Assembly (NCBI GenBank): GCA_009699245.1
Contig: WLOQ01000001.1
Span: 1-64,000, forward strand
Source: Actinomycetota bacterium
GTDB taxonomy: Bacteria; Actinomycetota; Thermoleophilia; Solirubrobacterales; Solirubrobacteraceae
Direction: 5' to 3'
DNA length: 64,000 bases
The translations under genes were made by a program, and so were the position numbers. The number at the start of each line of letters is the position of its first letter. Position 1 is the stretch's first letter. Shown here piece by piece: positions 23,311-32,384 of this stretch. The notes beneath the pieces are model-generated. The model was not told the origin of the DNA and did not search any database. It saw only the letters and a list, made by a program, of their open reading frames with translations.

Positions 23311-25854
<2,544 letters not shown>

Positions 25855-25856
25855 AA

Positions 25857-25879
25857 ATCTAAGCCTAGCAGACTTAGAT
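25857..25879 (-). promoter_or_regulatory. clpB extended -10 within an inverted repeat (candidate HspR operator)
   Basis: Perfect inverted repeat ATCTAAG (25857-25863), 9-base spacer, CTTAGAT (25873-25879). Read on the minus strand it contains TCTGCTAGGCT, an extended -10 (TGC-TAGGCT, hexamer 25867-25862) 7 bases before ATG 25854. The repeat covers the -10 and likely start site, ideal for repression. The dnaK promoter shares TCTGCTAnGnT. It does not match the known HAIR consensus CTTGAGT-N7-ACTCAAG. Confidence 0.5.
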
Positions 25880-25903: not shown

Positions 25904-26371
25904 TCAGTCGCGTTCGATGGGGATCCGGCGCACCGGCGGGCGCACGTCGGCGGCGCGCACGATCGCGGTCGAGTGGCGGATCGGCACGAGCTCGGCGCGC
26001 ATCGACTGGCGCACGCGCTCCATCTCGGCCTCGAGCTCCTCGCGCATCCGCCGGCTGCGCTCCTCAAGCTGCTCGAGGCGCCGCCGCGACCGCTCAAGCT
26101 CCGCCTCGAGCTCGAGCACGCGCTCGACGCCCGCGAGGTTGAGCCCCAGCTCGGTCGTCATCTCCTGGATGCGGCGCAGGCGATCGACATCCGACTGCGA
26201 GTACAGGCGCGTGCCCTTGGGCGAGCGCTGCGGCTCGATCAGGCCGCGCGCCTCGTACATGCGCAGCGTCTGCGGGTGCATCTCGGCGAGCTCCGCGGCG
26301 ACGGAGATCATGAAGACGCCGCGCGACTCGTCGACCGTGATGCGCGTCGTCGTCCGGCGGCGCACGCTCAT
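25904..26371 (-). CDS. hspR: Heat-shock repressor HspR (MerR family)
   Basis: 155 residues. MerR-type helix-turn-helix at about 18-90 (MISVAAELAEMHPQTLRMYEARGLI, then RLYSQSDVDRLRRIQ), followed by a charged coiled coil (about 82-130) and a basic tail. HspR represses dnaK and clpB operons with DnaK as co-repressor in other actinobacteria; here it closes the dnaK-grpE-dnaJ-hspR operon, overlapping dnaJ by 4 bases, giving autoregulation. The N-terminal RRRTTTR stretch is a short extension. A cis target is proposed at clpB and dnaK. Confidence 0.93.
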   Translation of the reverse strand: MSVRRRTTTRITVDESRGVFMISVAAELAEMHPQTLRMYEARGLIEPQRSPKGTRLYSQSDVDRLRRIQEMTTELGLNLAGVERVLELEAELERSRRRLEQLEERSRRMREELEAEMERVRQSMRAELVPIRHSTAIVRAADVRPPVRRIPIERD

Positions 26372-27507: not shown

Positions 27508-28064
27508 CTACGCGGCCACGACGACCTTCGCCGCGCGCAGGACCTCGTCGCCGAGGCGGTAGCCGGCGGAGTAGACCTCGATGATCGTGCCGGCCGCGAC
27601 GCCCTCGGCGGGCGCCTGCGCGACCGCCTCGTGGACGTGCGGATCGAACTGCTGGCCCGACGGATCGTCGGGCACGATGCCGACGCGCTCGAGCGCGGCG
27701 AGCAGCTCGCGCTGGACGAGCCGGATGCCGTCGGTCAGGTGACTCTCCGCGTTCTCCGGCTGCGCCTCGACGGCCGCCAGTGCGCGCTCGAGGTTGTCGA
27801 TCGCGGGCAGCAGCTCACGCGCCAGGCGCGCGGTGCCGCGGCCCTCGGCGAGCGCCGCATCGCGCCGCGCGCGCTTGCGCACGTTGTCGAGGTCGGCGAC
27901 CGCGCGGACCCACAGGTCCTGGTAGTCCGGTGCCTCTTCGGCGGCGGGCTCCTCCTGCTCGGTGTCGGCGCCGATGTCGATGGCCTCGGCCAGGGCCGGG
28001 TCGACGACGTCGGCATCCGGCACCGCGTCGGGCTCGACCTCCGGCGTCTCAGGGGATTCGCCGC

Positions 28065-28068
<4 letters not shown>
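27508..28068 (-). CDS. grpE: Nucleotide exchange factor GrpE
   Basis: 186 residues. Acidic, low-complexity N-terminus (about 1-45), a helical region with [20 protein letters not shown], and the beta domain with [14 protein letters not shown] and [15 protein letters not shown]. It releases ADP from DnaK. The start overlaps the dnaK end by 4 bases. Confidence 0.96.
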
Positions 28069-29948
<1,880 letters not shown>

Positions 29949-30035
29949 GTGGGGATTGCTCCTTGGTGCGTCCGGGAATGATGCGAGGATCGGGGCGCGC
30001 CGCCCTTGACGAGGAGGCACGAAAAAATCTTAGTC

Positions 30036-30052
30036 AGATCGTAGCAGATCTA
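30036..30052 (-). promoter_or_regulatory. dnaK extended -10 with inverted repeat
   Basis: On the minus strand this region reads TAGATCTGCTACGATCT: an AGATC/GATCT inverted repeat (arms 30051-30047 and 30040-30036) around TGC-TACGAT, an extended -10 (hexamer 30043-30038). The TCTGCTAnGnT core is shared with clpB, and CTAAGATTT follows a few bases downstream in both (CTTAGATTT at clpB). Predicted leader before dnaK is about 80 bases with an SD. It directly abuts the nth stop codon. Confidence 0.45.
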
Positions 30053-30748
30053 TGATGCCCGATCGAGGCGCCCCGGACACATTCGGCGCAGGGCGCAGGT
30101 GCCGCACTCCGGCGACCGCGCGTGGCACGTGCGGCGGCCGTGGCGCAGGAGGTTGGCGTGGAGCTCGAGCTCCGCGCCGCGCGGCGTGAGCAGCAGCATC
30201 TCGTCATGGAGCTCCTCGAACCCAGCCCCGGGGCGCAGCAGACCGAGCCGCGTCCCGACGCGCGAGACGTGCGTGTCGACCGGGACGTCGCGCAGGCCGT
30301 AGGCGAACAGCAGCACGCAGGCGGCGGTCTTGCGGCCGACACCGGGCAGGGTGCACAGGAAGGCCTGCGATTCCGGCACCGGCGCTGTGCGCATCCACGA
30401 CAGATCGAGATCGGACGGGAGCGCCTCGAGGATCGCCTTGATGCGCCGCGACTTCTGAATGTGGAGTCCGCCCGGCTGGATCGCCTCCTCGATCGCCGCG
30501 ACCGGCGCGTCGCGCACGTCGGCCCACGTGGCGAAGCGCTCGCGCAGGCGCAGGAAGGCGACATCGCGGTTGCGGTCGTTCGTCGACTGCGAGAGGACCG
30601 TCAGGATCAGCTCGGCGAGCGGGTCACCGTGCGGCTCAAGGACGGGGATCCCGTAGACCTCTGCGAGCCGCAGACGCAGGGCCGCGATCCGGCGTGCGGA
30701 CGGCCGGCGCCAGTCGGCGCGGGAGATCCTCTCGGCGGCAAAGGCCAC
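30050..30748 (-). CDS. nth: Endonuclease III-like DNA glycosylase/lyase
   Basis: 232 residues. Removes oxidised pyrimidines and cuts the abasic site. Helix-hairpin-helix LPGVGRKTAACVLL carries the catalytic Lys, and VDTHVSRVGTRLGL the catalytic Asp. The C-terminal cluster motif C-x6-C-x2-C-x5-C (CHARSPECGTCALRRMC) ligates a 4Fe-4S cluster. GTG 30748 is chosen because TACCGT lies 8 bases upstream and longer starts run into the divergent gene. The stop abuts the dnaK promoter. Confidence 0.92.
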   Translation of the reverse strand: MAFAAERISRADWRRPSARRIAALRLRLAEVYGIPVLEPHGDPLAELILTVLSQSTNDRNRDVAFLRLRERFATWADVRDAPVAAIEEAIQPGGLHIQKSRRIKAILEALPSDLDLSWMRTAPVPESQAFLCTLPGVGRKTAACVLLFAYGLRDVPVDTHVSRVGTRLGLLRPGAGFEELHDEMLLLTPRGAELELHANLLRHGRRTCHARSPECGTCALRRMCPGRLDRAS

Positions 30749-30756
30749 GGTGGCTG

Positions 30757-30766
30757 ACGGTATCGT
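30757..30766. promoter_or_regulatory. Overlapping divergent -10 elements (nth / membrane protein)
   Basis: The 10-base sequence ACGGTATCGT holds TACCGT on the minus strand (30762-30757, 8 bases before nth GTG 30748) and TATCGT on the plus strand (30761-30766, 10 bases before ATG 30777). The two hexamers share the central TA, so one element may fire in both directions. Confidence 0.4.
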
Positions 30767-30776
30767 GCGGCCGCGG

Positions 30777-32384
30777 ATGGCCCAGATGCTCGAGCCCGTC
30801 GGCGCACGCCCAGGCGCCTCGCTCCCGGCCCTCCTGCGGCGGTGTCCGGCATGGGTCCTGACGGCGCTCCTCGCCGTCGTCTGGCTGATCGTCGACCCAC
30901 CCACGCCCGACCTCGCAGCGCATCAGTACCGGGCTGACGTGTTCCGCACCGCCCATGCCCTGATCTGGGAGCAGGGCTGGTACGCCGGCCACCACCTGCC
31001 GGGCTACAGCGTCCTCGTTCCGCCGATCGCCTCGGTGATCACGCCGCAGGCGCTCGCGGCGCTCTGCGTCGCCATCGCCGCCTGGTGCTTCGAGCGCCTC
31101 GCGCAGGGTCACTGGACCGGGAACGCCGCGCGCGCCGCGACGCTCTGGTTCGCGATCGGCGTGACGTCGACGCTTCTCGGCGGGCAGCTCGCGTTCGCCG
31201 CCGGCCTCGCGCCGGGCCTCGCCGCGCTGCTCGTCGCGCGCTCCGGACCGCGCTGGGCGGCCCTCGCGCTCGGGGCCCTCACGACGCTCACGAGTCCGAT
31301 CGCCGCCGCCTTCCTCGTCTACGGCTGCGCGGCATGGTGGCTCGGCACGCGCGACACGCGGGCCGCCTGGCCCGCGGTGGGCGCCGTCGTCCCGGGCGTC
31401 CTGATCGCGGTCGCCTTCCCGCAGGGTGGGGTCCAGCCGTTCGGGACTGTCGCGGCGCTGATCTCGCTCGCGGTGGCGCTCCTCGTCCTCCCGATCCTGC
31501 CGCGTGGCGAGCGCCTCGTGCGCTGGGGCGCCGGGCTCTATGGAGCGCTGATCGTCGGCGCGATGCTGATCGACACACCGGTCGGCGGGAACCTCGTGCG
31601 CCTCGCCGCCGTCTTCGGGGGGCCGGTCGTCGCCGGCGCGCTGTGGGGACGGCGTGCGCTGGCGCTCGCGCTGCTCGCTCCGGTCCTCTTCGCGTGGCAG
31701 TGGTCCGCGCCGGTGCGCTCGATCGCCCGTGACGCACACGACCCAGCGCGCCACGAGGCCTACCACGCTCCCCTGATCGCCGAGCTCGACCGCCGCGCAG
31801 CGGTCGAGGGGCCGTTCCGCCTCGAGATCCCCTTCACCCGCACCCACTGGGAGACGCGCTGGGTCGCACTGCGCCATCCGCTCGCGCGCGGCTGGGAGCG
31901 CCAGCTCGACGTCAAGGAGAACGACCTCTTCTACGAGGGCGTCCTCACCCCGCAGCGCTATCGCGACTGGCTCGACACGCTCGCCGTGCACTACGTCGCG
32001 GTGCCCGACACGGTGCCGGACCCGGCCGGTCGCGCCGAGACGCGGCTCGTGACCGCGGGAGCAGTACCCGGCCTGCGTGAGGTCTGGCACGACCGCCACT
32101 GGCGGCTCTACGCCGTCGCGGGCGCGCGACCGCTCGTGGCACCCCCGCTGCGCGTCAGCGCACTCGGTGCGGACACGGTGACGCTCACCACGCCGCGACC
32201 GGCGCGTGGTCTGCTGCGCGTGCGCTTCTCGCCGTACCTGAAGCTCACGCGGGGCCGCGGCTGCCTCAGTCGCGGACCGGGCGGCTGGACGCTCGTGCGG
32301 CTCGACCGGCCCGGGAGCGCGACGATCGAACCCGGCTTCGCCCTCGGCCGCATCCATGCGACCGCGCCGCGCTGCGCGGGCTGA
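30777..32384 (+). CDS. Polytopic membrane protein, possibly GT-C glycosyltransferase-like
   Basis: 535 residues. About ten hydrophobic segments fill residues 20-310, followed by a soluble C-terminal domain (about 320-535). After the first helix come acidic loop residues (IVDPPTPDLAAHQYRADVF), and a luminal-type YAGHHLPGYSVLVPP segment; this layout resembles membrane glycosyltransferases that use lipid-linked sugars, but no diagnostic motif is clear. ATG 30777 is preferred; GTG 30750 and ATG 30786 are alternatives. Divergent from nth and 56 bases upstream of the inositol-lipid genes, so it could belong to their pathway (inference). Confidence 0.65.
   Translation: MAQMLEPVGARPGASLPALLRRCPAWVLTALLAVVWLIVDPPTPDLAAHQYRADVFRTAHALIWEQGWYAGHHLPGYSVLVPPIASVITPQALAALCVAIAAWCFERLAQGHWTGNAARAATLWFAIGVTSTLLGGQLAFAAGLAPGLAALLVARSGPRWAALALGALTTLTSPIAAAFLVYGCAAWWLGTRDTRAAWPAVGAVVPGVLIAVAFPQGGVQPFGTVAALISLAVALLVLPILPRGERLVRWGAGLYGALIVGAMLIDTPVGGNLVRLAAVFGGPVVAGALWGRRALALALLAPVLFAWQWSAPVRSIARDAHDPARHEAYHAPLIAELDRRAAVEGPFRLEIPFTRTHWETRWVALRHPLARGWERQLDVKENDLFYEGVLTPQRYRDWLDTLAVHYVAVPDTVPDPAGRAETRLVTAGAVPGLREVWHDRHWRLYAVAGARPLVAPPLRVSALGADTVTLTTPRPARGLLRVRFSPYLKLTRGRGCLSRGPGGWTLVRLDRPGSATIEPGFALGRIHATAPRCAG

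What the first reader, a model, noticed from the sequence alone, without database searches (positions are those of the whole stretch)
25857..25879. Candidate non-HAIR HspR operator at clpB overlapping an extended -10
A perfect ATCTAAG-N9-CTTAGAT repeat spans the TGC-TAGGCT element and the predicted leaderless start. HspR is encoded next door, yet no HAIR (CTTGAGT-N7-ACTCAAG) is present.
Basis: partly seen in the sequence, partly recalled or inferred. Interest (0 to 1): 0.55.

Follow-up and report, generated by a model that had tools for sequence, protein, structure and literature searches.

The report
Variant HspR heat-shock operator at clpB
A short mirrored DNA sequence sitting on the promoter of the chaperone gene clpB is almost certainly the landing site of the neighbouring heat-shock repressor HspR, in a spelling that differs from the textbook HspR site and is shared by a whole bacterial order.

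Summary
The dyad is real (25857-25879) and is almost certainly an HspR operator, but it is not unrelated to HAIR. Read one base further in, it is ATCTNAGT-N7-ACTNAGAT, which keeps the AGT-N7-ACT core and 7-bp spacing of HAIR (CTTGAGT-N7-ACTCAAG) and differs mainly in its outer bases. An unbiased palindrome search upstream of dnaK and clpB in Solirubrobacterales and relatives returns its outer frame, ATCT-N15-AGAT, as the top pattern: 49 of 51 dnaK and 36 of 47 clpB upstreams, against at most 9-10 for any pattern in shuffles. In relatives the motif also precedes lon, a Clp ATPase gene and hsp20, the usual HspR targets. It disappears from clpB where clpB is packed within 24 bp behind hspR, and it is absent from the 3 dnaK upstreams checked in a family without HspR. 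The window's dnaK promoter carries a second, half-degenerate copy (30027-30049). Likely mechanism: HspR blocks RNA polymerase at the -10/start site. Across Actinomycetota the outer bases (AGAT or AAGT/AACT) track two HspR residues (56 and 21 here), but too few independent switches exist to prove a recognition rule. No binding or expression was measured. New variant of a known kind, moderate interest.

The parts
25857..25879 (.). HspR operator (HAIR variant) of clpB; on the - strand ATCTAAGT-CTGCTAG-GCTTAGAT
25862..25870 (-). extended -10 TGCTAGGCT of the predicted clpB promoter, inside the right half of the operator
   Evidence: sequence; the position is kept in the short-leader clpB group; the simple sigma-70 scan finds no promoter with a -35
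25852..25854 (-). clpB start codon, 2 nt from the dyad; predicted leaderless start
   Evidence: inference
23311..25854 (-). clpB, 847 aa
   Evidence: TIGR03346, 1275.6 bits, cut-off 1232.1
25904..26371 (-). hspR, 155 aa, MerR-type repressor
   Evidence: NF047375, 115.7 bits, cut-off 105; PF13411
26204..26206 (-). codon of HspR L56 (wing, TRLYS), candidate specificity residue
26309..26311 (-). codon of HspR M21, second candidate specificity residue
30027..30049 (-). HspR operator of the dnaK operon, ATCTGCTA-CGATCTG-ACTAAGAT; left half degenerate
   Evidence: the same form in 49 of 51 dnaK upstreams
30038..30046 (-). extended -10 TGCTACGAT of the predicted dnaK promoter, inside the left half and spacer of the operator
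   Evidence: sequence
28065..29948 (-). dnaK (start inferred from the domain start; an in-frame upstream GTG lies at 30020)
27508..28068 (-). grpE
   Evidence: PF01025
26368..27498 (-). dnaJ

Best explanation
The dyad is an operator of HspR, encoded 25 bp away in the same dnaK-grpE-dnaJ-hspR cluster. A dimer of HspR, presumably with DnaK as co-repressor as in known systems, binds the 23-bp site ATCTNAGT-N7-ACTNAGAT. Because the site covers the -10 element and the start of clpB transcription, bound HspR shuts RNA polymerase out; on heat stress HspR lets go and clpB is transcribed, probably as a leaderless mRNA. A second site on the dnaK promoter makes the operon self-regulating. The site is a variant of HAIR with changed outer bases. 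Shown here: sequence, conservation, target genes, the tie to a clpB promoter of its own, and absence in a family without HspR. Inferred: binding, repression, DnaK's role, leaderless start.
For: HspR next door passes its curated cut-off. ATCT-N15-AGAT is the top palindrome in 49 of 51 dnaK and 36 of 47 clpB upstreams; the best of any pattern in 10 shuffles is 9 and 10. Of 61 family genomes 56 have a match at up to 2 mismatches, 12 of 61 with the reversed control pattern. The dyad follows clpB when clpB lies kilobases from hspR: 18 of 22 clpB with a gap over 200 bp or elsewhere have it and 3 of the other 4 have a near form; all 7 without any form at gap up to 24 bp, where clpB can ride on the dnaK operon. 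Of 45 distinct sites in relatives 43 precede clpB, lon, a Clp ATPase gene or hsp20 (six spot-checked with Pfam). In family f11, where 0 of 11 genomes have HspR, 3 of 3 dnaK upstreams checked lack the dyad. The -10 sits in different registers of the dyad at clpB and dnaK, so the dyad is not itself a promoter element. Core and spacing equal HAIR.
Against: No binding or expression data. The dyad is absent from one clpB with room for a promoter (L138, outside the order). 5 of 61 family genomes have no match. In the window's own genome only clpB and dnaK carry the site; lon does not. The left half of the dnaK site matches only in ATCT. Most relatives are metagenome-assembled genomes.
Confidence: 0.9

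Rival explanations
1. Another repressor, not HspR, owns the dyad at clpB, dnaK, lon and hsp20 (for example a MerR paralogue or an HrcA-like protein).
For: The outer half-site differs from the published HAIR, and weaker HspR-profile matches (other MerR-type proteins) exist in the genome.
Against: The core and spacing are those of HAIR; the target set is the HspR regulon; HspR-bearing families have a dyad of this geometry at dnaK while the 3 dnaK upstreams checked of HspR-less f11 do not; no CIRCE in the window at up to 3 mismatches.
Confidence: 0.06
2. RNA element: in read-through mRNA from hspR the arms form a hairpin that hides the clpB start codon (thermometer) or ends transcription.
For: The - strand RNA can form a 10-bp stem next to the AUG; z-score -1.65, 15 of 200 shuffles fold as well. 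At clpB positions 5 and 19 are complementary in 25 of 36 sites, 16.3 expected.
Against: At dnaK the inner arms are not complementary beyond chance while the outer bases are invariant; the dyad also occurs where clpB is far from hspR; no terminator-like site.
Confidence: 0.03
3. Chance inverted repeat.
For: 24 repeats of this geometry lie in the window.
Against: Conservation across the order.
Confidence: 0.01

Closest known systems
HAIR, the HspR operator of Streptomyces (CTTGAGT-N7-ACTCAAG; consensus as quoted in PMC6102357 and PMC7464140, passages read)
   Same: 7-bp spacing, AGT/ACT inner core, T at half-site position 4 of the 8-mer, placement on dnaK and clpB promoters, hspR in the dnaK cluster
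   Different: outer half-site ATCTN instead of ACTTG, that is AGAT instead of AAGT on the right; fourth base free; 7 of the 14 HAIR positions match at the window site (counted by hand from the sequence)
Extended HAIR of Bifidobacterium (AAAsTTGAGysw-N6-CTCAAsTTTT; PMC9004370, passages read)
   Same: A/T-rich flanks; ours also ends AGATTT at dnaK
   Different: half-site spelling
HAIR-like operators of Helicobacter and Campylobacter HspR (PMC6102357, PMC7464140, passages read)
   Same: degenerate second arm beside a conserved arm, as at dnaK here
   Different: extended 70-80-bp footprints and several sites; only one dyad per promoter scored here
GlnR/TnrA box TGTNA-N7-TNACA (MerR-like; PMC9249791, passages read)
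   Same: N7 dyad read by a MerR-type winged helix dimer
   Different: other bases, other regulator; no contact by the residue equivalent to HspR 56 appears in the passages read

Membership tests
HspR repressor family (NF047375) | profile score above the curated cut-off | tested here: met
   115.7 bits against 105
HspR repressor family (NF047375) | hspR in the dnaK-grpE-dnaJ cluster | tested here: met
HspR operator | bound by HspR | not testable with these tools
   needs a binding assay
HspR operator | lies on promoters of HspR target genes (dnaK, clpB, lon, hsp20) | tested here: met
HAIR (canonical) | half-site CTTGAGT | tested here: not met
   7 of 14 positions at the window site; no exact HAIR in 27 of 27 genomes of the class
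HAIR (canonical) | inverted repeat with 7-bp spacing and AGT/ACT inner ends | tested here: met
   consensus; the window copy has one inner mismatch
CIRCE (HrcA operator) | TTAGCACTC-N9-GAGTGCTAA | tested here: not met
Classical MerR activator operator | dyad between -35 and -10 with a long spacer | tested here: not met
   the dyad covers the -10 at clpB and dnaK; placement rule recalled, not read here

The most novel reading that the evidence does not exclude
HspR of Actinomycetota reads two operator codes, AGAT-type (window, Thermoleophilia and other clades) and AAGT/AACT-type (HAIR), and the switch is set by the wing residue 56 (L or R) together with residue 21 (M or V/I) of HspR.
Probability: 0.35. 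Interest if true: 0.6.

Novelty: new variant of a known kind. Interest (0 to 1): 0.4.

Why it matters
It explains why a HAIR search finds nothing in this class (0 of 27 genomes) although HspR is there, gives a motif with which the heat-shock regulon of poorly studied Actinomycetota can be read from sequence, and names two HspR residues that make the recognition code of this repressor testable by mutation.

Tried and rejected
Non-HAIR reading: rejected once the arms were extended by one base. CIRCE: none. RNA hairpin or terminator: weak. Co-loss test inside the class: genomes that seemed to lack HspR (G361, G378) also lack dnaK, and G380's dnaK lies at a contig end, so these are probably assembly gaps and useless as controls; f11 was used instead.

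Residue-to-base rule: at one representative per family (39 families) L56 ranked first of 95 HspR columns for half-site position 7: hydrophobic 56 had A in 15 of 15 families, R56 had G or C in 22 of 24. With more genomes it held in 76 of 87 scorable loci. Results against it: inside family f3 five L56 HspRs go with G (four ATGT, one AAGT), f26 has one exception, f71 (R56 with M21) has both kinds of site, and L163 (f10; L56 with V21), left out for a low score, has C. On a DnaK tree residue 56 and residue 21 each change 5 times, only 3 independent pairs rest on supported branches, the site follows in about 2 and never goes the other way; a sign test cannot reach significance (the smaller set gave the same). 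Most changes of the site come without a change of residue 56. So the rule stays a hypothesis. GlnR-DNA structures as described in PMC9249791 name another wing residue, not this one.

Dropped rows: L091, L098, L115 as near-duplicates; loci whose dnaK or clpB 5' end or at least 60 bases of upstream DNA was missing; 11 of 98 loci without a clear site. Seven ties between candidate sites were settled by eye (five), which may favour the rule. Structure prediction was not run because coordinates could not be inspected and no DNA can be added.

Full report
Observation. The repeat is present exactly as described, in the 49-bp gap between hspR and clpB, in a - strand cluster dnaK-grpE-dnaJ-hspR-clpB. 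The window lies in a 1.95-Mb genome whose nearest named relatives are Solirubrobacteraceae/Solirubrobacterales. As a mere inverted repeat it would be unremarkable: 24 perfect 7-bp repeats with a 9-nt spacer occur in the window and 10-22 in ten simulated ones. Its A/T content is unusual, and its conservation is decisive.

Conservation. In 61 genomes of the family, 56 hold ATCTAAG-N9-CTTAGAT at up to 2 mismatches and 12 hold the reversed control. In 80 named loci I asked without a preset motif which inverted 4-mers and 5-mers recur in 200 bp upstream of dnaK and clpB. ATCT-N15-AGAT came first: 49 of 51 dnaK and 36 of 47 clpB upstreams, while the best of any pattern in ten shuffles was 9 and 10. 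Alignment gives ATCT(A/C)AGTC-N5-(G/C)ACT(T/G)AGAT at clpB; at dnaK the right half is the same and the left half is ATCT followed by the -10 element. The window's dnaK copy is at 30027-30049.

Relation to HAIR. Written as ATCTNAGT-N7-ACTNAGAT the site has the inner core and spacing of HAIR (consensus seen in passages of PMC6102357 and PMC7464140). Exact HAIR occurs in 17 of 296 Actinomycetota genomes and in 0 of the 27 genomes of the window's class; the exact variant occurs in 9 of 296, of which 3 are in the window's family, 5 in an unnamed family f40 of another class and 1 in f45 (reversed controls 1 and 2 of 296). The exact pattern is strict: the window itself misses it by one base.

Targets. 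I read the genes beside 46 dyads in relatives (45 distinct sites; 3 further loci, L044, L047 and L060, matched only the looser first pattern and were not counted). 26 precede clpB, 7 lon (one of them fetched twice), 4 a Clp ATPase gene, 6 hsp20; 2 (L210, L213) have no heat-shock gene. Pfam confirmed two Lon, two Clp ATPases and two Hsp20 among these; the other lon, Clp and hsp20 were assigned by their like N-terminal sequences, clpB by alignment to the window's ClpB. The target set matches the HspR regulon as I recall it.

Natural experiments. clpB is often far from hspR. Of 47 clpB upstreams, the 7 with a gap of at most 24 bp have no dyad, and of the 40 others 36 have it exactly, 3 (L072, L094, L121) in a near form and 1 (L138) not at all. 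Two loci left out because the ClpB alignment began at residue 4 (L113, L122) have near forms at gaps of about 86 and 128 bp. So the dyad belongs to a clpB promoter of its own, not to the end of hspR. In family f11, where 0 of 11 genomes have HspR, the three dnaK upstreams examined have no dyad (best neutral score 6 of 8), while five comparison genomes score 8 of 8.

Mechanism. TGCTAGGCT lies in the right half at clpB, TGCTACGAT in the left half at dnaK, and in the Conexibacter clpB group a TATGAT lies at the left edge. The dyad keeps its sequence while its register to the -10 moves, which fits a repressor that blocks polymerase rather than a promoter element or a classical MerR activator. In several other families the left half coincides with a TTGACA -35. 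Release on heat and DnaK as co-repressor are taken from published HspR work (PMC10415612, passages) and were not tested.

Recognition code. Across the phylum the right half ends AGAT or AAGT/AACT, and HspR has TRLYS with M21 or RRYS with V/I21. The association is strong in counts (76 of 87 loci) but rests on few independent switches, with clear exceptions in f3, f26 and f71. I keep it as the most novel reading, not as a result. A study of protein-DNA correlations in MerR regulators (PMC5045206, passages) does not mention HspR.

Prior work. Searches of the open-access library listed no paper that, from its title and abstract, describes HspR operators in Thermoleophilia or this variant; subscription papers and regulon databases were not searchable.

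Noticed in passing
30050-30904: An HhH-GPD (endonuclease III-like) gene on the - strand ends directly at the dnaK operator, so the dnaK promoter starts at its stop codon.
   Followed up: partly
L066, L068, L082, L124: Records titled Bifidobacterium breve carry hspR loci close to Solirubrobacterales; the titles look mislabelled.
   Followed up: no
L238 (G000:C16:25000-26300): In the window's genome lon starts right after the end of a reading frame that looks like the C-terminus of an Hsp20 protein (my reading, no profile run), and no dyad was found there.
   Followed up: partly
L201-L205: In five genomes of unnamed family f40 an exact variant dyad lies upstream of hsp20 (Pfam checked on L201).
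   Followed up: partly
L154, L176, L279-L282 and others: The left half of the dnaK operator coincides with a TTGACA -35 hexamer in several Actinomycetota families.
   Followed up: partly
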